A DNA stretch of 24,533 nucleotides from a virus: IMG/VR virus record IMGVR_UViG_3300047557_000451, positions 1 to 24,533 of that record. One strand, written 5' to 3'. Shown in pieces: positions 5,230 through 24,013 of the stretch (its first letter is position 1; each line of letters begins with the position of its first letter). The notes beneath the pieces were generated by a model. The model worked only from the letters and a program-made list of their open reading frames with translations. It was not told the origin of the DNA and did no database searches. Both the position numbers and the translations under genes were made by a program.

Positions 5230-5887
5230 TATTCTCCAAGCGGTTCGTGACATCACGGAACTGGATAGCACCGATATTTCGGATAGTTTGCTGACGCTAT
5301 ATTTGCGCGACGGCTATAATCGGATTATTGATTTGGAACGGCGTTGGCCGTTCCTTGAAGTGTCGTTCACTTTGACAACCGTTGCCGACCAACAGTCGTA
5401 CACCATTAACGATTTCACAACCGATGATATCCGTGAAGTAATCAGTGTCGTTGACCCCAATAACATTCGGCTATCGTACATTGATTATGATGAAGCCGAA
5501 GCCCAGTTTCTGACGCCCGCCACTCCGGTTGGGCGTCCAACATTCTTCTCTTTCTGGGCTGACGAAATCCATTTCTTCCCTCAACCCTCGGAAGCATACG
5601 CCCTTTCTGTCCGCGCCTATAGACATCCTGAGGATTGGGTGACGGCGGGGACAACGCCAGATGGCCCCGACTCTTTCGACCTGCCGTTGGTGTACTACAT
5701 TGTTTCTCGCGTCTATCAGTCGCAAGAGGAAATTGGTGTTGCGAACGAATATGAGCGTTCGTTTGCTGACGCCATCAGTTTGGCTAGGCGCGACATTATG
5801 CGCCCCGAATCGTATGCCCCTGTTGTGTTTGCTGGCGGTAAAGGTATCCGCCGCTGGAAGGGGACGGACTGGGATAGCACGATATGA
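5201..5887 (+). CDS. Head-tail connector / tail adaptor protein (gp4/gp11-like)
   Basis: The 228-aa product is read from ATG 5201, which has AAGGAAG just upstream; an in-frame TTG at 5195 lies too close to that site. The N-terminal helical region (TKANILQAVRDITELDSTDI, then LLTLYLRDGYNRIIDLERRW) is typical of podovirus adaptor proteins that sit under the portal. A beta-rich middle follows (RPTFFSFWADEIHFFPQPSE and ALSVRAYRHPEDW). The C-terminal helix covers SRVYQSQEEIGVANEYERSF. The length fits tail tubular A or gp4-type adaptors. It overlaps the next gene in an ATGA arrangement, so adaptor and nozzle are translationally coupled. A perfect 8-bp hairpin (GGAACGGC-GTTG-GCCGTTCC, 5335-5354) lies in its coding sequence. 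Confidence 0.82.
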   Translation: MAQTRLTKANILQAVRDITELDSTDISDSLLTLYLRDGYNRIIDLERRWPFLEVSFTLTTVADQQSYTINDFTTDDIREVISVVDPNNIRLSYIDYDEAEAQFLTPATPVGRPTFFSFWADEIHFFPQPSEAYALSVRAYRHPEDWVTAGTTPDGPDSFDLPLVYYIVSRVYQSQEEIGVANEYERSFADAISLARRDIMRPESYAPVVFAGGKGIRRWKGTDWDSTI

Positions 5888-10722: not shown

Positions 10723-13700
10723 ATGGGCAAGTATTCTGACTTGTTTGCTAATGCGGCAGGTTCTGCCAGCACTAGTAGGATTGCGCCGGAGGCGGCTGAA
10801 CTTGCTAGCGCAGTTCAATCCGCACAATACCGTATCGGCTCCAGCCCTGCTGTAGCCAGTTCCGGCAAGTATGCTGATTTGTTCAGCAACATCCAGGGTA
10901 TTGCGGCTGGTCAGAAGAAACCATCTAGAGGTTTGTGGGGTGCTGTTGGTGGCGGACTAATGAAGGGATTGGAGGGGCTGGGTTATGTGCTTGGCACTCC
11001 TGTCCGCGCTACTGCTAGTGTCGCCAAGGAAATCACTGATGTTATTGAGGGTCGTGGTTTTTCTCCTAGCGATTTGGTTAAGCAGGTTGCGGATAAAAAC
11101 TTTTATCCGTCAACACTAATTAAAAAGACTGGCAACTCTTGGCTGGATTCCACGTTCGGCTTTGCGGCCGATGTGTTGGCTGACCCAACAACGTATGTGA
11201 CGTTTGGTGCTAGCGCATGGGCTGGTAAGGCTGGGCGTTTGGCATTGGCCGCCAAGGCGGCCGAGGCCGCGAATATTGCCAAGGCTCCTGGTTTGGCTAA
11301 TAAGTTGGATGAGATTGCTCGCCTGGGTGTCCACGCAGATTTAACGGATGCGGAGCGTGCGCTCCTTAACGCGCCCAAGGGAGTGTCATGGACCTTTGGC
11401 CCGTCGCGTGGACAGATTATTGGCAAGGAGGGAACGGCTCTCCGCAGGGCGTCTGATGTGTTGTCGGAAACCGTGGGCAAGACGACAGCGCGTACTCGTG
11501 CCGCGATTGGCGACTTGCCGTTCTTGGAGCCGGTGCAGAAGGTGGTATTCAACAAGTCTATTCGTGATTCGGATTTGATTATGTTGGGCCGTCGCGGTGC
11601 GACTTACAAGCCACAGGATATTGTGGAGCGTTTGGCTGGTTATAGTTCTGCTCAGCGGGGCAAGGCTATGGGCCGAGCGTTTATTGCGAAGATTGGTTCC
11701 GAGAACCAGCAGTTGGCTAAGGAGATTTCAGAGTTTGAGCGTGCGACCGGCTTGCGTGTGTCGTCGTTTATTGAGGACCCGAATCTTCCTAGGCCACCGG
11801 AGGCTCAGGCTGTTCTCGCTAAGACGGAGGACTTTCTTGCTAGGGCCCGACAGGCGGCTAATGATACAACAGCAGAGTTCGCGGCTCGGCGTGGTGTGCG
11901 CACATATGACATTGGCCATCAGGATAACTATGTGCCTCACACGTTGTCCGAGGACGCTAGGGCGTGGCTGGCTTCTAAGCGTTGGCGGGGTACGAAGTAT
12001 GCGTCGTTTGTTCAGCAGGTGTTGGACCTGAGTCCTGACGAATTTATTAAGGGTCCTGCTGTTATGCGTGCCCGTAAATTGGGGCCAGGTAAGGTGTGGT
12101 TGGATGAGCAACTGGCGACTGGTTCGATTGACGAAGTCAACCGAATCACTCAGCAGAAGTTGGGGTTCAAGTGGTTTGAGGATGATGGTGCCACCTATTT
12201 GAACTCGTATATCAACTCGTTGGGTTCGCAGATGAAGCGTGTCGGTTTTACCGACCGCCTGTTTGATTACGGCGTGGATGTTGTTAAGGCTATTGACTAC
12301 AAGTTGATTCCCGACCAGGAGGTTGTGAAGTCGTGGCGTTCCGCTACGCGCGCATGGAATAGGATGTTGGGTGCGGTGACAGCCGAGAAGGGGAAGTTGG
12401 GTACCCAGGCCGCCAGCGTTCTCCGCAAGGGCGAGAACGTGGCGCGTCAGGTCATCCAGGATAATAATACTAAGTTGATTTTTTCTCAGGGTGAGATTGC
12501 CCGCATTCAACAGGAGTTGTCGCAGGCCCGGTATTTCTTGGATGTTGCGTCTGAGCGCGCATCCCAGCGCGGTGGCAACCTTCAGCAAACCTTTGAATCA
12601 ACTGTCGCTCCGTTCCGGGCGCGCCTACAGGAGGTTGAACAGGCGTTGTCCACGAATGACCAGTTGGAGTTGGCGGCTGTCATGTATCTGGAGGAAACTC
12701 ATGCAATGATGTTTCCAAAGATGAAGAATCGTCCTACCGACCCCCGTGTTATGGCGGAACAGATTCTGGCTAAGAACGAGTCACGCGCTACTGCTCGTGT
12801 GAAGGCTCTTGAAACTAGGATTGCGAGACTTAAGCGTTCGTTGGGTGAAAGGGGCAAGACCGCTAAGGGCATCCGGAGAACGGAAGCAGAGATTGAAAAC
12901 ATTAAGGATGAGATTGCTATTTATCAGTCTCAGATTGATAATGTCACCGAGGTAATCGGCAGGCAAACCGAAACCTTCCCTGATGGTTATTACGTTCTTG
13001 ATGCCAATAAGGTTGATTGGATGTTGCAGACCGATAGAAGTGTAATTCCTTCTGTTGACTTTGACCCCGGTGACCCTGACGCGATTATCTTTAAAGCACC
13101 AGACCCCAAGTCGTGGGCAATGATTGACCCCGCCGAAGATGTTGAATCAGCAAAGTATTTCTTTGATAACCTTGGTCGGGCTTTTCAAATGGAAATGGAA
13201 AGGTTCGGCCCGGAAGCCGCGGAGCAAGGCGCTTTGTTCGCTGGCGCGTGGAACGACCTTGTTTCTGGGCGTGGCTCAATTAACATGTGGAGCATGCAGA
13301 ACCAGGAACTTGAATTCTTGTTCCAGTATGCCGAACAGTATAAGAAATATTTGGATGACGTTCTACAGAACGGGCCGGACGACTTCTTTGAAGAACAGTT
13401 CAAAGTGTTTTCTATTCTTGCTACTGAAAACATGGCTTCGTTTTTTGCTAAAGCACAGAACGAGGGATTGAATCTATCTGATTTTGCCGACGACCCCGCA
13501 GGTGTCGTCCGCCAGATTTTTGTGAACATCTCAGAAATTGCCACAAGGAAAGGCGACTTTGCCCCGGCAGGTAACAAGGGTATTGCTGGAATCTATTTGC
13601 CAGAAGAACTGTATGAGTTCATGGACACAAACTACTACAGGGCGGCCAATGTTGGAAACGAACCGCCGTTTGAAAGTGCACAGGAACTTTTAACTGGAGT

Positions 13701-16005
13701 AGATAAACAGACTGCGCCCGGCTACATTCCGCCGAACATGGAAGAAATCTTCCCTAATAGGGAGACAATGTTCACTCTTAATCAGGATTCTTTCTTCTCT
13801 GACGATGGGGAAAGATTGTTGTCGTTGAACTCTGATTACGTTCGTCGGACTGTTGACAGTTCTAGCAAAGATTTCACGATGATTACCGACAACACTGACC
13901 CGTTCTTTAAAGCGGTTGAGTCAATGTCTACTTTCGGCACTAATCCATTTGACGAGTACGCATACCTATCCGAGAACTTAGAGTTGCAGAGGTCGTTGTT
14001 GCCTTCGGCTGAGGCGAACTTGGGCGGACTGGTGCTGGAACGTATGGGCAGAGAAGCGGAATTGAAGTCTGCTATTGGGCAGAAGGGTGGTACTATTTCC
14101 GCCGCCAAACGTCTAGAGGAAAAAGCCCGCGGTGCCGCCGAAACAGTACGTCGTTCAACTGAGGCTATTGAAATTCCCGACGGCCAGGGCGGGACAGCAA
14201 GCATTACACGCGAGGAAGCATTAGCAAGATTGGGTAAGGATGCGCGCCGTATTGCGCGCGAAGAAAAGAAACTGGCTAAGGCCATTAGCGACGACCCGAT
14301 TATGAAAGAGGCCCGCACTGCGGGCAAGACATACGAGCGCGTCCAGGCCAGTTTCGATTCAGCCAAGGCATTGCGCGCTGAGGCAGGTGATTGGGAGCAG
14401 ACATACGGTGCATCGTATCGTGAAGATTTGATGGCATTGGAACAGGTTTTGGCGGACCGTCCCCCGAAGGGGGCCGCGGCCGAAGTTGTGAACGAATGGC
14501 AGAACCAGTTGACCAATGTGTTTTCCCAGATTCGCAACCCGCAGATTTTTACTGAACCTCAGCGTAATGCTATGGAGCGCATCATGCTCCAGAAGAAGGG
14601 GCTAGAGGCGCAGATTGCGATATTGGAACAGACGGTTGACTTTGGCAACTTGATGTTGAAGCGAGCCGAGTCAGGCGAACTTGCTGGCAGGATTGTCCAG
14701 GACCTGAAAGATGGTTGGGGTGCTATTGAATCGTTGGGTGTTCAGATGCCTCCCGATTTGCGTGACCTGATGTTCAACCGTATTGATAACCTGAGCAACC
14801 CTAAGGAATTCAACAAGTTCCTAGATGCCTACTTCCGGTATCAGCGGTTCTTCAAGGTGACCGCCATGCTTACGCCTGGCTTTATTGTGCGCAACGCTAT
14901 GACCGCGGCTTTCAACAACTATGTGGCTGGTGTTACGACAGGCGAGATTGCTGATGCCATTAAGTTCTCGCAGAACTCGTTGAAGCATGGGTCCGCTAAG
15001 GCATTGGAGATGGTGCCTGCGGTTGACCGCAAGTTGTATGATGAGGCGTTTAATGTCGTCATGGCCACTGGCGCAGGCCAGACTGCCGACGACTTCTTCT
15101 ACCCTATCGCATCCGAAAAGGGTCAGCGTTGGCTGAACTCCAAGATTGTTTCCAAGTGGCGTGGACGTAACGAGCAGGTGGAAATGGCCGCGCGTATGGC
15201 GTTGGCTTTGTCCTCGCTGAAGAAGAACCTTGGGTTCGATGGGGCGGTTGCCCAGGTTAACCGCTATCACTTCGACTATACGGACCTGAGCAGACTGGAC
15301 GAGATTGCCAAGACGGTTGTCCCGTTCTGGACGTTCGCCACTAGGAACATTCCGCTTCAGATTATGAACCAGATTGCACGACCCAGTTTGTATCGTGCGT
15401 ATGATTCGCTGGAGCGCAACTTTGAGATTGACGAGAACTTGGTTCTTCCTCAGTGGGTGGCGGCCAACCGTCCCATTAGTGGGCCGGGTGGCCGGGTGTT
15501 CATGCCCGATTTGCCGTTTATTGATATGGAGAACCAGTTGCGTCAGTTTGCTGACCCAATGCGGTTGGCGTCCCAGTTGAACCCGGCTGTCCGTCTGCCG
15601 ATTGAGTTGCTGGGCGAACGCCAGTTGGGCTTGGACATCCCGTTCTCCGATAAGCCGTATCAGGTGCGTGGGCCGCTGGATATTCCTGCGGCTATTGGTG
15701 GTGCGCTATTTGGGCAGACCACCCAGACCGCTGACGGGCAGATGGTCACATCATCCAAGGCTGGGTATGCGCTACCAAGTTTGTTCCCAACTCTGGCTTT
15801 GGCACAGCGTCTGGTGCCACAGGCCGGTGGCAAGGAATCATATGTTGAGCGTCAACCCTATAGCATTCTGAGCGCGGCGACGGGTATCCCGTTGCGTGGC
15901 ATCACCGATAAGGAGCAGGCTGACGAGTTGATTCGCCGCCAGTTTGCGTTGCGTGACTTCCTCAGTAATTTGACACGACTTGGCTATTTGGAACCGAAAG
16001 ATTAG
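10723..16005 (+). CDS. Giant virion protein, putative large ejection protein (gp16-like role), 1760 aa
   Basis: This is the largest gene in the window. Residues 2-10 and 48-56 repeat the motif GKY(S/A)DLF(A/S)N. A Gly-rich hydrophobic segment (GLWGAVGGGLMKGLEGLGYV, about 70-89) follows, then DSTFGFAADVLADPTTYVTFG near 142-162. DNYVPH lies at 401-406, and long coiled-coil stretches fall around 575-720 and 1130-1220. Two further motifs sit near 1376 (FFKVTAMLTPGFIVRN) and 1530 (VVPFWTFATRN). I recall the NYxPH, PGFxxRN and PFxxFxRN motifs together in giant uncharacterised phage virion proteins. I see no transglycosylase or peptidase active site. As the last and largest of four consecutive candidates it should be ejected to build a DNA channel in the host envelope; that is inference. 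Codon use in the middle (about 12840-14400) favours GAA and AAA, unlike the flanks. Confidence 0.7.
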   Translation: MGKYSDLFANAAGSASTSRIAPEAAELASAVQSAQYRIGSSPAVASSGKYADLFSNIQGIAAGQKKPSRGLWGAVGGGLMKGLEGLGYVLGTPVRATASVAKEITDVIEGRGFSPSDLVKQVADKNFYPSTLIKKTGNSWLDSTFGFAADVLADPTTYVTFGASAWAGKAGRLALAAKAAEAANIAKAPGLANKLDEIARLGVHADLTDAERALLNAPKGVSWTFGPSRGQIIGKEGTALRRASDVLSETVGKTTARTRAAIGDLPFLEPVQKVVFNKSIRDSDLIMLGRRGATYKPQDIVERLAGYSSAQRGKAMGRAFIAKIGSENQQLAKEISEFERATGLRVSSFIEDPNLPRPPEAQAVLAKTEDFLARARQAANDTTAEFAARRGVRTYDIGHQDNYVPHTLSEDARAWLASKRWRGTKYASFVQQVLDLSPDEFIKGPAVMRARKLGPGKVWLDEQLATGSIDEVNRITQQKLGFKWFEDDGATYLNSYINSLGSQMKRVGFTDRLFDYGVDVVKAIDYKLIPDQEVVKSWRSATRAWNRMLGAVTAEKGKLGTQAASVLRKGENVARQVIQDNNTKLIFSQGEIARIQQELSQARYFLDVASERASQRGGNLQQTFESTVAPFRARLQEVEQALSTNDQLELAAVMYLEETHAMMFPKMKNRPTDPRVMAEQILAKNESRATARVKALETRIARLKRSLGERGKTAKGIRRTEAEIENIKDEIAIYQSQIDNVTEVIGRQTETFPDGYYVLDANKVDWMLQTDRSVIPSVDFDPGDPDAIIFKAPDPKSWAMIDPAEDVESAKYFFDNLGRAFQMEMERFGPEAAEQGALFAGAWNDLVSGRGSINMWSMQNQELEFLFQYAEQYKKYLDDVLQNGPDDFFEEQFKVFSILATENMASFFAKAQNEGLNLSDFADDPAGVVRQIFVNISEIATRKGDFAPAGNKGIAGIYLPEELYEFMDTNYYRAANVGNEPPFESAQELLTGVDKQTAPGYIPPNMEEIFPNRETMFTLNQDSFFSDDGERLLSLNSDYVRRTVDSSSKDFTMITDNTDPFFKAVESMSTFGTNPFDEYAYLSENLELQRSLLPSAEANLGGLVLERMGREAELKSAIGQKGGTISAAKRLEEKARGAAETVRRSTEAIEIPDGQGGTASITREEALARLGKDARRIAREEKKLAKAISDDPIMKEARTAGKTYERVQASFDSAKALRAEAGDWEQTYGASYREDLMALEQVLADRPPKGAAAEVVNEWQNQLTNVFSQIRNPQIFTEPQRNAMERIMLQKKGLEAQIAILEQTVDFGNLMLKRAESGELAGRIVQDLKDGWGAIESLGVQMPPDLRDLMFNRIDNLSNPKEFNKFLDAYFRYQRFFKVTAMLTPGFIVRNAMTAAFNNYVAGVTTGEIADAIKFSQNSLKHGSAKALEMVPAVDRKLYDEAFNVVMATGAGQTADDFFYPIASEKGQRWLNSKIVSKWRGRNEQVEMAARMALALSSLKKNLGFDGAVAQVNRYHFDYTDLSRLDEIAKTVVPFWTFATRNIPLQIMNQIARPSLYRAYDSLERNFEIDENLVLPQWVAANRPISGPGGRVFMPDLPFIDMENQLRQFADPMRLASQLNPAVRLPIELLGERQLGLDIPFSDKPYQVRGPLDIPAAIGGALFGQTTQTADGQMVTSSKAGYALPSLFPTLALAQRLVPQAGGKESYVERQPYSILSAATGIPLRGITDKEQADELIRRQFALRDFLSNLTRLGYLEPKD

Positions 16006-17100: not shown

Positions 17101-17337
17101 TCAGTCGTCATCTTCGTCGGGGCTGATGGCCTTCAGTTTCAACCGCATGGCGTCCACGCGGTCAATAACATCTTCTGCCATCTCAGGCCAGAAAGAGATT
17201 CGGTTTTCTTCCAGAAGAAACTGGGCGTCCAAAGCGATATCCTCAAGTTCCCAAATACGGAAATACATTTCAATGATTTCGTCACGGAGCGCACGGTTCT
17301 GACGCTTCAGTTCCTTGCGTGTCACATAGTTAAACAT
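17101..17337 (-). CDS. Small charged helical hypothetical protein
   Basis: The 78-aa product is read from ATG 17337, preceded by AAAGGA. An upstream in-frame ATG at 17385 is less likely because it would overlap most of the previous small gene. The protein is highly charged and almost wholly helical (RKELKRQNRALRDEIIEMYF, then LDAQFLLEENRISFWPEM), ending in the acidic SPDEDDD. The start overlaps the end of the preceding 57-aa gene by 8 bases. It could be a coiled-coil partner or host-interaction protein; function is unknown. Confidence 0.65.
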   Translation of the reverse strand: MFNYVTRKELKRQNRALRDEIIEMYFRIWELEDIALDAQFLLEENRISFWPEMAEDVIDRVDAMRLKLKAISPDEDDD

Positions 17338-17503
17338 TCTTCTTGGTCCTTTCTTCAATTTGTTCAATAACACTAATGGCATCATCCAATGTGCGTACCC
17401 GCGCCATTGGCATACCCATTGATACCGCCAGAGTTTTAACGCTAATCAGTTGACGCTTGGCTTCGCCAAGGTCGGTTGTTGTGCGATGCTTCCGAGGAGC
17501 CAT
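17330..17503 (-). CDS. Short basic hypothetical protein (57 aa)
   Basis: The start codon shares one base with the stop of the upstream sigma4-like/Nmad1 gene (TGATG), and GGAGG lies 10 bases upstream. The 57-aa product has a basic N-terminus (APRKHRTTTDLGEAKRQL), a Met/Val-rich centre (TLAVSMGMPMARVRTLDDA) and a helical Glu/Lys end (VIEQIEERTKKNV). It is too short for usual length cut-offs, but it exactly fills the space between two genes with tight overlaps at both ends, which supports it. The order of helices could suit a small DNA-binding protein, but I see no clear HTH. Confidence 0.6.
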   Translation of the reverse strand: MAPRKHRTTTDLGEAKRQLISVKTLAVSMGMPMARVRTLDDAISVIEQIEERTKKNV

Positions 17504-18339
17504 CAAAACGGGTCCTCCAATTCCAACTCAAGTTGGAATGTTCCATCGTCCAACATCTTAGCGAGGACAGCATACCCGACCATGTCGGTCAGCGTGTCCA
17601 AAACTGTTTCACCAGCGACCCTATTGGGGCGGTCCTGAAGGTTGCGGTACCTGGCAATCTTGTCGCTGAGGCGCACGGCGATGCCGAACACACCGAAGGC
17701 GTTGATGTTGTCATGCCCATAGTCATGCTGTTTGGAACATAGCGTGTCTTGTAGCGATTCGATATCCCATGCCCCCATGTCCACGAGCGCCCGGCCTGCT
17801 TCACATCCGGCGCTCCAGCAGATATCTACCAGTTTGCTGTCGTCCATATTCTTGACAGCCTTACCCATGTTCTTGAAGTGAACGGAGAATGTTTCTGGCG
17901 TGTACTCTCCACCGCCAGCGCATCGGTCCATCACACGCAGATGACGCCATGCGGCGTCTGCCCAAGTTTCTTTACTCATATGTACCTTCCCTTCAATCAA
18001 TCGAATAATTCTGTGGTCTGTTTCCAAGATTTCTTTCAGTTTTGCTTGCGCCGATTTCACTGCCCCGTGAGCCGACGCTTTCGATGAGTACCCCATCATA
18101 TCAGCAATCTCAGAGTACGACCGACCCCAAATGTAAACCGCTTCCAGAACCCAACGGTCCTTCTCCTCTAGACTTTCCAGCCCCTCCTGAATAGCACCAG
18201 ACACACCATCACTTAGGCGTTCCGTAGGTGACTGGGTAACTGCCGCCATAAGAATCTCAATAGGGTCATCACCTAATGGTTGCGGGATTCTCTGGATGAA
18301 ATCCTCGTCAAGGCTTAAACCGACTTTCTTAGAACTCAT
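17503..18339 (-). CDS. Sigma-region-4-like HTH fused to a DUF1599/Nmad1-like domain; possible internal start
   Basis: The product is 278 aa. Residues 56-106 (LESLEEKDRWVLEAVYIWGR, then SYSEIADMMGYSSKASAHGA and a following helix) read as a sigma-70 region 4-type helix-turn-helix. The C-terminal part has KQHDYGHDNINAFG (204-216) and FGIAVRLSDKIARYRNL (218-234), followed by ETVLDTLTDMVGYAVLAKM (244-262). That pattern matches DUF1599, which I know as nucleotide modification associated domain 1. An in-frame ATG at residue 121 (base 17979) has an AAGGGAAGG Shine-Dalgarno at 5-base spacing, so the C-terminal domain may also be made alone (158 aa). No sigma region 2 is present, so this is more likely a regulator or a DNA-bound enzyme than a true sigma factor. 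No other modification gene is visible here. Confidence 0.7.
   Translation of the reverse strand: MSSKKVGLSLDEDFIQRIPQPLGDDPIEILMAAVTQSPTERLSDGVSGAIQEGLESLEEKDRWVLEAVYIWGRSYSEIADMMGYSSKASAHGAVKSAQAKLKEILETDHRIIRLIEGKVHMSKETWADAAWRHLRVMDRCAGGGEYTPETFSVHFKNMGKAVKNMDDSKLVDICWSAGCEAGRALVDMGAWDIESLQDTLCSKQHDYGHDNINAFGVFGIAVRLSDKIARYRNLQDRPNRVAGETVLDTLTDMVGYAVLAKMLDDGTFQLELELEDPF
17985..17993 (-). promoter_or_regulatory. Internal Shine-Dalgarno within the HTH-Nmad1-like gene
   Basis: On the minus strand AAGGGAAGG lies 5 bases before the in-frame ATG at 17979, at the boundary between the HTH part and the DUF1599-like part. It is stronger than the ribosome site of the full-length start at 18339, which has no good Shine-Dalgarno. 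Confidence 0.5.
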
Positions 18340-18341
18340 AA

Positions 18342-18785
18342 CTACTGTTCGTCCAAAGGGATTCCGTCATATAGGGGGTTGGTCAACATGTCTGTCACAT
18401 CCTCGGGTTCCAGCAGGTACCCTCGGGCCGCGTTATCTCCACGCACACCGAACATCTTTAATTCCATGTTCGGCCCGTTCACCTCAATGTAGCGTTTCAC
18501 TCTGTCCACGCTGATGATTGTGAACGCACCATCCAGGTTGTACTGGTACACCCACCATTTGGCTTCGGTGACAGCAACACCGGATGGTTTCCATCCACGA
18601 CCCTTGGGGTTCTGTTCGATTTCCAGAACCATGCGACCGTTCCTATAACGGTCGGACTTGACCTCCAGAGAACCGACACCGATATCCTCTAGGAACTTTT
18701 CGATGACGGCTTCGCCGCGCTTGCCGTATTTCAGGTCGTCTGGGAAATAAGGTTTGGGTATGTCGAACGCACTATTCTTTGCCAT
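18342..18785 (-). CDS. PD-(D/E)XK-like nuclease, putative
   Basis: The product is 147 aa. GKRGEAVIEKFLED (residues 21-34, Glu25) followed by SLEVKSDRYRNGRMVLEIEQ (39-58; Glu41-x-Lys43 and Glu55) and PSGVAVTEAKWWVYQY (67-82) match small phage PD-(D/E)XK-fold proteins. In those a Gly-Glu helix, an E-x-K strand and a Lys-Pro-Ser-Gly turn recur. The usual Asp just ahead of E-x-K is not obvious, so activity is uncertain. Such proteins are thought to process recombination or replication intermediates. The gene overlaps the upstream one by 14 bases and lies near RusA, consistent with a recombination cluster. The C-terminal third (MLTNPLYDGIPL) has no recognised motif. Confidence 0.6.
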   Translation of the reverse strand: MAKNSAFDIPKPYFPDDLKYGKRGEAVIEKFLEDIGVGSLEVKSDRYRNGRMVLEIEQNPKGRGWKPSGVAVTEAKWWVYQYNLDGAFTIISVDRVKRYIEVNGPNMELKMFGVRGDNAARGYLLEPEDVTDMLTNPLYDGIPLDEQ

Positions 18786-23266: not shown

Positions 23267-24013
23267 CTAGTTGGTACTCGGGTTATTGTCACGCATGCGG
23301 GACTTCATCTTGCTAACAGCAGAGGTTCCTAGTTGGATGTTGAACTCGTGTTGGATGGTAGCAAGAATCTGTTTGTTCGGCACACCCTGGTTAATGAGTT
23401 CACGCATACGCTGTTGGTATGGGTGGACTCCAGGTCCACGCATCACCTTGTTCGTCGGCCGGTTCGACCAATAGTTTCTGAACCTGGTGACGCTGTCGGT
23501 GCTGATACCGAACTCGTAACTGAGTTGTTCCAAGGTACGCTTGGGGTCCATGATTGCCTGTTCGAACTCGTTCAAAGTGTCCGCGCTCATGCTCCATCTG
23601 CCCATGCTAACGGCTTGAGTGAACCGCTCGGCGGTTAACCCCAAGTCTGATAGGACCTTGGCAATAGGTGGCGCATCGGGAATAGATAGCGCATGACGGA
23701 CACGGACACGGATTGCTCGGGCCGGGTGAACAGCAGACGCACCCTTGGCAGGCTCCAGTTCCTCCAGTTTCGGGGCGTTCTGTTGCGCTATGAACATGTC
23801 ATGTAGGTGAACCAGGTCCTGGAAGTAGTCCAGTATCATGGTGTCACTCCAACCATCTTCCCCATAGCCACGATATTCACAGAGTTGTTCGCCCATCCAC
23901 ATCCCAGTGACCGGGTCCACACCCGTGGTCACGGGGCTGGGGATAACTACATCACATAGACACTCGGGGTCATGCCCCGGTGTGCCACAACCAATTACTT
24001 CCACGGATTCCAT
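23267..24013 (-). CDS. DNA-binding protein with multiple HTH-like segments
   Basis: The product is 248 aa, with GGAGG about 6 bases before the ATG. The N-terminal part has four Cys (9, 18, 20, 45; CGTPGHDPECLCDVV) that may bind zinc. Residues 159-182 (RTLEQLSYEFGISTDSVTRF) and 205-239 (ELINQGVPNKQILATIQHEF, then NIQLGTSAVSKMKSR) look like two helix-turn-helix units. Residues 113-150 (PIAKVLSDLGLTAERFTQAV) may be a third. Serial HTH domains suggest a repressor, an immunity-like regulator or an origin-binding protein. Being second in the leftward series and just before the nuclease, it is likely expressed early. The family is not recognised. It overlaps the upstream gene by 19 bases. Confidence 0.65.
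   Translation of the reverse strand: MESVEVIGCGTPGHDPECLCDVVIPSPVTTGVDPVTGMWMGEQLCEYRGYGEDGWSDTMILDYFQDLVHLHDMFIAQQNAPKLEELEPAKGASAVHPARAIRVRVRHALSIPDAPPIAKVLSDLGLTAERFTQAVSMGRWSMSADTLNEFEQAIMDPKRTLEQLSYEFGISTDSVTRFRNYWSNRPTNKVMRGPGVHPYQQRMRELINQGVPNKQILATIQHEFNIQLGTSAVSKMKSRMRDNNPSTN

What the first reader, a model, noticed from the sequence alone, without database searches (positions are those of the whole stretch)
17503..18339. Sigma-region-4-like HTH joined to a DUF1599/Nmad1-like domain, with a strong internal start between them
The N-terminal 120 residues carry a sigma4-type HTH. The C-terminal 158 carry the K-Q-H-D-Y-G, R-L-x-D-K and D-T-L-x-D pattern of DUF1599, a domain linked by comparative genomics to modified-nucleotide systems. 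At the exact junction an in-frame ATG (17979) has a better Shine-Dalgarno than the full-length start. One gene may therefore give a DNA-targeted fusion plus a free enzyme-like domain, a two-product design I do not know to be described.
Basis: partly seen in the sequence, partly recalled or inferred. Interest (0 to 1): 0.65.

Follow-up and report, generated by a model that had tools for sequence, protein, structure and literature searches.

The report
Two-product phage gene, repeatedly fused
A phage gene joins a DNA-binding-like half to an enzyme-like half of unknown activity; relatives in about a hundred phages show that these halves are often two overlapping genes, repeatedly fused and possibly re-split, and that fused genes usually keep the second gene's old start signal, so they probably make both the joined protein and the free second half.

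Summary
The ORF is real, on the minus strand (18339 to 17503, 278 aa). Pfam confirms both halves just above cut-off: sigma-70 region 4 (residues 49-88) and DUF1599/Nmad1 (203-261). The internal ATG (17979) has the strongest Shine-Dalgarno of 22 in-frame start codons in the ORF (-8.1 against -3.0 kcal/mol at the full-length start) and lies in the linker between two folded domains. Among 104 non-redundant relatives, 50 are fused and 49 are split: an HTH gene beside or overlapping (mostly by 1-32 nt) a DUF1599 gene whose start aligns with the window's internal ATG. The tree needs about six fusion/fission changes. Fused lineages keep start plus SD beyond chance (one member from each of 23 lineages, z = -6.7 against synonymous recoding); one clade has lost it. 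Two products are likely but unproven. The two-product design is not new (phage endolysins, Cas8b/Cas11b). No thymidylate synthase, MazG or cytosine methylase was found in 40 family records, so a modified-DNA role is unsupported. New variant of a known kind.

The parts
17503..18339 (-). Full-length ORF: sigma-4-like HTH fused to DUF1599/Nmad1 domain, 278 aa
18076..18195 (-). Sigma-70 region 4-like HTH (Pfam match, residues 49-88; predicted helices 44-105)
   Evidence: Pfam PF08281 26.5 bits; Foldseek to sigma region 4 domains 2h27_D TMt 0.78 and 3hug_K TMt 0.81, probability 1.00 though E-values are not significant
17977..17985 (-). Low-confidence linker between the two domains (residues 119-121)
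   Evidence: AlphaFold2 pLDDT below 50
17985..17994 (-). Internal Shine-Dalgarno GAAGGGAAGG, 5 nt before the internal ATG
   Evidence: duplex energy -8.1 kcal/mol; synonymous recoding p about 0.02 for this sequence alone
17977..17979 (-). Internal in-frame ATG (Met121); homologous to the start codon of the separate DUF1599 gene in split relatives
17503..17979 (-). Predicted short product: free 158-aa all-helical DUF1599/Nmad1 protein
   Evidence: model pLDDT 92.4, pTM 0.88
17557..17733 (-). DUF1599/Nmad1 core (residues 203-261) with KQHDYG, RLSDK, DTLTD
   Evidence: PF07659 27.5 bits in the full protein, 29.2 in the short product; 39 of 40 aligned relatives match PF07659
18342..18785 (-). Upstream gene of unknown function (phrog_13596), 2 nt before the ORF start; same position in most relatives
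17330..17503 (-). Downstream small gene, overlapping the stop by 1 nt (TGATG)

Best explanation
The locus encodes a two-subunit phage module: a sigma-region-4-like DNA- or RNA-polymerase-binding protein and an all-helical Nmad1 (DUF1599) protein. In about half of this phage family they are two genes overlapping by a few to about 30 bases; in the other half, including this window, they are one ORF. The window's internal SD and ATG are the start signal of the second gene. It still works, so the gene yields a full-length fusion plus extra free Nmad1 subunits. SHOWN by sequence: the two arrangements, homology of the internal ATG to the split gene's start, repeated fusion/fission, and selection on codons that keep the SD. 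INFERRED: that ribosomes use the internal start here; that the two halves act in one complex and the internal start sets subunit ratio, as in two-polypeptide endolysins. GUESSED (about 0.3): the helical subunit handles a nucleotide or nucleic acid and the sigma-4 subunit brings it to promoter DNA or RNA polymerase.
For: Split relatives: 49 of 104 representatives have the HTH gene directly upstream of a DUF1599 gene, mostly overlapping by 1-32 nt; L004 (MW202803.1) has MSNSTW at the DUF1599 start where the window has MSKETW. Split L228 groups with the window's own clade (97/88) and fused L125 inside a split clade (100/96). Six changes of state, 6-7 over bootstrap trees, at least 5 forced by well-supported branches. 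SD retention: one member from each of 23 fused lineages, summed energy -107 against -52 +/- 8 for synonymous recodings, 0 of 1000 as low, z -6.7; Fisher p 6e-6. Junction windows against background: E <= -6.5 in 36% against 1.6%. Lineages without a start codon have no SD (mean +0.8). Linker at Met121. SD at split DUF1599 starts: mean -6.7.
Against: No expression data. The host and its 16S tail are unknown; a standard anti-SD was assumed. The test chose the strongest candidate start per junction (the recoded null did the same, not). In the window's close relatives the signal weakens: L007 -3.9, L008 only GTG with -2.6. One fused clade (L043, L046, L050, L186, L189, L205 and others; also L196-L200) and L019 have lost it, so free Nmad1 is not essential everywhere. 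L228 and L125 are single contigs and could hold an assembly error; without them four changes remain. No enzymatic activity of DUF1599 is known to me.
Confidence: 0.72

Rival explanations
1. Only the fusion is made; the internal SD and ATG are a neutral relic of a recent fusion, not used.
For: The signal is weak or lost in L007, L008, L019 and one whole clade, and an ancestral gene start would leave just such a relic.
Against: Codon choice keeps the SD in many old fused lineages against phage codon usage (z -6.7), with AGA/AGG arginine codons where the clade without a start uses mostly CGN.
Confidence: 0.17
2. The DUF1599 half is part of a DNA or nucleotide modification pathway and the HTH targets it to DNA.
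For: The Pfam name of PF07659 is 'nucleotide modification associated domain 1'; the module sits near replication genes (RusA, primase, DnaB). L084 has a C5 methylase upstream of its DUF1599 gene.
Against: No ThyA, ThyX, MazG or C5 methylase hit in 40 family records; no solved-structure relative. L084 is an outlier without the HTH. Records may be fragments, and other modification enzymes were not tested.
Confidence: 0.12
3. Split members also make the fusion by programmed frameshifting or readthrough, so the fusion is the only universal product.
For: L081-type members have the two genes in one frame separated by a single TAA.
Against: The frame relation differs: of 49, 38 would need +1, 9 would need -1 and 2 would need readthrough, so no common recoding signal fits; canonical SD and ATG lie at the second gene.
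Confidence: 0.05
4. Chance: a coincidental purine-rich stretch before a methionine codon.
For: Lysine/arginine-rich linkers give SD-like sequence readily; recoded versions of the window average -6.1.
Against: Recoding test across 23 lineages, background windows, and exact homology to real gene starts in split relatives.
Confidence: 0.03

Closest known systems
Two-polypeptide phage endolysins encoded in single genes (PMC9430671; e.g. Lys170, LysP7951)
   Same: [quoted passage not shown] in several, the two forms assemble into one complex.
   Different: Those join a catalytic domain to a cell-wall-binding domain and are proven by expression; here the domains are sigma-4-like HTH and Nmad1, and expression is untested. 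A split two-gene state was not looked for there.
Cas8b with internal Cas11b (PMC11899642)
   Same: A C-terminal small subunit made from an internal in-frame start of a larger gene, in extra copies. Other type I subtypes encode Cas11 as its own gene (my knowledge), the same split/fused alternation.
   Different: Unrelated proteins; CRISPR effector complex.
T7 gene 4A/4B primase-helicase (from memory)
   Same: Internal in-frame start removes an N-terminal nucleic-acid-binding domain in a phage protein.
   Different: Unrelated proteins; no split relatives examined here.
DUF1599 / Nmad1 proteins, PF07659, phrog_1485
   Same: The C-terminal half matches above the Pfam cut-off and phrog_1485 at 5e-13.
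   Different: Here an extra helical part of about 80 residues precedes the core, and the gene is always paired with or fused to an HTH in this family; crAss-like and Geobacillus phage members match only over the core.
Phage sigma-factor-like and late regulators (phrog_1740, phrog_36, phrog_3512)
   Same: HTH half matches them weakly to moderately.
   Different: Region 4 only; no region 2 found, and joined to or coupled with Nmad1.

Membership tests
DUF1599 / Nmad1 (PF07659) | Score above Pfam gathering threshold | tested here: met
   27.5 bits, cut-off 25; 39 of 40 aligned members match at E <= 0.1
DUF1599 / Nmad1 (PF07659) | Conserved D-Y-G, R-x2-D-K and E-x3-D-x3-D residues | tested here: met
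   Invariant in A7: K83 Q84 D86 Y87 G88 R103 D106 K107 R110 E124 D128 D132 of the short product
DUF1599 / Nmad1 (PF07659) | Genomic link to nucleotide-modification enzymes | tested here: not met
   0 of 40 records with ThyA, ThyX, MazG or C5 methylase; other enzymes not tested. This link is not part of the Pfam definition.
Sigma-70 region 4 domain (PF08281) | Score above Pfam gathering threshold | tested here: met
   26.5 bits, cut-off 25.7
Sigma-70 region 4 domain (PF08281) | Region 4 fold | tested here: inconclusive
   Foldseek probability 1.00 and TMt 0.78-0.81 to 2h27 and 3hug, but E about 1
Complete sigma factor | Region 2 in addition to region 4 | tested here: not met
   No region 2 match; residues 1-43 are mostly low-confidence
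MazG-like NTP pyrophosphatase | Sequence or fold match to MazG | tested here: not met
   No MazG in Pfam scan; only a weak BFVD fold hit to a putative NTP pyrophosphohydrolase, E 0.087
Two-product gene with in-frame internal start | Internal start codon with SD, conserved across relatives | tested here: met
Two-product gene with in-frame internal start | Both polypeptides detected | not testable with these tools
   needs expression or proteomics
Translationally coupled overlapping gene pair | Same-strand overlap or very short distance with second RBS | tested here: met
   In split relatives, not in the window itself: overlaps of 1-32 nt in most of 49

The most novel reading that the evidence does not exclude
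A phage two-subunit complex in which a sigma-4-like subunit brings several Nmad1 enzyme subunits to promoter DNA or RNA polymerase, with the copy ratio set either by overlapping genes or by a fusion plus internal start, the two designs being interchanged repeatedly in evolution.
Probability: 0.15. Interest if true: 0.75.

Novelty: new variant of a known kind. Interest (0 to 1): 0.5.

Why it matters
The pairing gives DUF1599/Nmad1, a family with no known activity that I could find, a conserved partner and hence a testable functional context. The family is also a natural experiment on how overlapping gene pairs turn into fusions and whether the second product is still needed: several independent fusions keep the internal start, one clade has dropped it.

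Tried and rejected
DUF1599 profile against PDB sequences: nothing credible. Fold search of the full protein and of the C-terminal domain against PDB: sigma-4 domains for the N-terminus, only unrelated helical bundles for the C-terminus. BFVD: one significant hit, a 273-aa uncultured phage protein, then Nmad1 proteins at weak E-values. Profile comparison with the MW202803.1 'guanosine polyphosphate pyrophosphohydrolase': no similarity (that protein is an HD domain). Anti-phage-defence library: no match for the protein. Bacterial genomes: one distant hit without the HTH (L247). Programmed frameshifting was considered and set aside because the frame relation varies. First classification script mis-sorted domains and called some fused loci 'no HTH'; corrected. 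Paper searches for DUF1599/Nmad1 found no functional study.

Full report
WHAT IS THERE. The ORF at 17503-18339 lies on the minus strand (start 18339, stop TGA 17505-17503) and encodes 278 aa. Pfam-A gives DUF1599/Nmad1 at residues 203-261 (27.5 bits, cut-off 25) and sigma-70 region 4 at 49-88 (26.5 bits, cut-off 25.7). The internal ATG at 17979 (Met121) follows GAAGGGAAGG-TACAT. Its duplex energy with the anti-SD is -8.1 kcal/mol; the full-length start has -3.0; no other of the 22 in-frame start codons inside the ORF beats -4.6. AlphaFold2 (65-row alignment, mean pLDDT 86.7) shows two helical domains with low confidence exactly at residues 119-121; the short product alone models at pLDDT 92.4, pTM 0.88.

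CONTEXT. The window is a 24.5-kb virus record. The gene sits in a minus-strand early block with a RusA resolvase, an AEP-type primase and a DnaB-like helicase, opposite a plus-strand block whose gene order resembles a structural module (my reading).

RELATIVES. The closest relatives, L002/L007 (72% identity) and L003/L008 (52%), are fused. The only phage in the INPHARED collection with a strong match, MW202803.1 (L004), has two unannotated overlapping genes: an HTH ORF ending at 5867 and a DUF1599 ORF starting at 5842 with MSNSTW, where the window has MSKETW at its internal ATG. Three profile scans of IMG/VR gave 129 distinct loci, 104 at 90% nucleotide identity: 50 fused, 49 split with the HTH gene directly upstream, 5 without an HMM-detected HTH. 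Of these five, L221 and L238 do have an HTH-like ORF just upstream by eye, L065 is truncated, and L084 and the bacterial hit L247 lack one. In split members the second gene starts with ATG (46) or GTG (3), has mean SD energy -6.7, and overlaps the HTH gene by 1-32 nt in most cases.

HISTORY. A maximum-likelihood tree of the DUF1599 part, which excludes the junction, needs six changes between fused and split (bootstrap range 6-7; at least five forced by well-supported branches), with no bootstrap tree giving a single change (a 104-row quick tree agrees on six). Rooted on the split L078/L216 pair, several independent fusions are the simplest reading, with L228 (split, in the window's clade) either a fission or a sign of further fusions. 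L228 and L125 are single contigs. The root is not inferred by the method, so direction is an inference.

IS THE INTERNAL START KEPT BY SELECTION? Of 50 fused representatives, 40 have an in-frame ATG, GTG or TTG within 8 codons of the landmark tryptophan; mean SD energy -5.5 against -2.4 for synonymous recoding with the phage's own codon usage; the ten without a start have +0.8 against -0.8. Junction windows with start plus SD of -6.5 or better: 36% against 1.6% of windows elsewhere in the same ORFs. These counts include related sequences. With one member from each of 23 lineages (under 60% identity), including those that lost the start, and with the null allowed to choose its best start too, summed energy is -107 against -52 +/- 8 (z -6.7, 0 of 1000; Fisher p 6e-6) (lineages). 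The window alone gives p about 0.02. A clade with otherwise similar linker residues (IRK..) but no start mostly uses CGN arginine codons and has no SD, a natural control.

MECHANISM. [quoted passage not shown] In two-polypeptide endolysins, the internal start supplies extra C-terminal subunits that assemble with the full-length chain (PMC9430671); Cas11b is made the same way from cas8b (PMC11899642). I therefore propose one complex with more Nmad1 than HTH subunits. That ribosomes use the start, and that a complex forms, are inferences. What Nmad1 does is unknown: no solved structure matched, and the conserved D86, R103, D106, K107, R110, E124, D128, D132 (short-product numbering) only suggest an active site. 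The sigma-4 half suggests promoter DNA or RNA polymerase as target, but no region 2 is present, so it is not a complete sigma factor.

Fusion plus free domain: supported by comparison, not proven. Refutation criterion 'two separate genes with a frameshift': met in half the family, but it turns out to explain the internal start. Novel two-product design: not so. Modified nucleotides: no ThyA, ThyX, MazG or C5 methylase hit in 40 records; records may be fragments and other enzymes were not tested.

VERDICT. An undescribed (as far as the searched papers show) phage gene pair with repeated fusion and a kept internal start: new variant of a known kind, interest 0.5.

Noticed in passing
L004 4973-7010 (MW202803.1 16962-18999): About 2 kb without annotated genes in the public record holds the split HTH and DUF1599 genes plus neighbours.
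   Followed up: yes
window 18342-18785; L003 4511-4984; L004 4970-5443: Two unrelated gene families alternate at the position just upstream of the HTH: window type in 61 of 104 representatives, 'TPDY' type in 23. Both look like possible nuclease-fold proteins by eye; not tested.
   Followed up: partly
L084 1504-2928: A C5 cytosine methylase gene (PF00145, 2e-46) lies directly upstream of a DUF1599 gene that lacks the HTH partner.
   Followed up: no
L081 3964-3970, also L083 and L085: HTH and DUF1599 genes are in the same frame, separated by one TAA followed at once by ATG: one stop-codon change away from fusion.
   Followed up: no
window 10723-16005: A 1760-aa ORF in the plus-strand block, a very large gene for a genome of this size; not analysed.
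   Followed up: no
window 23267-24013: 248-aa minus-strand ORF without any PHROGs match.
   Followed up: no
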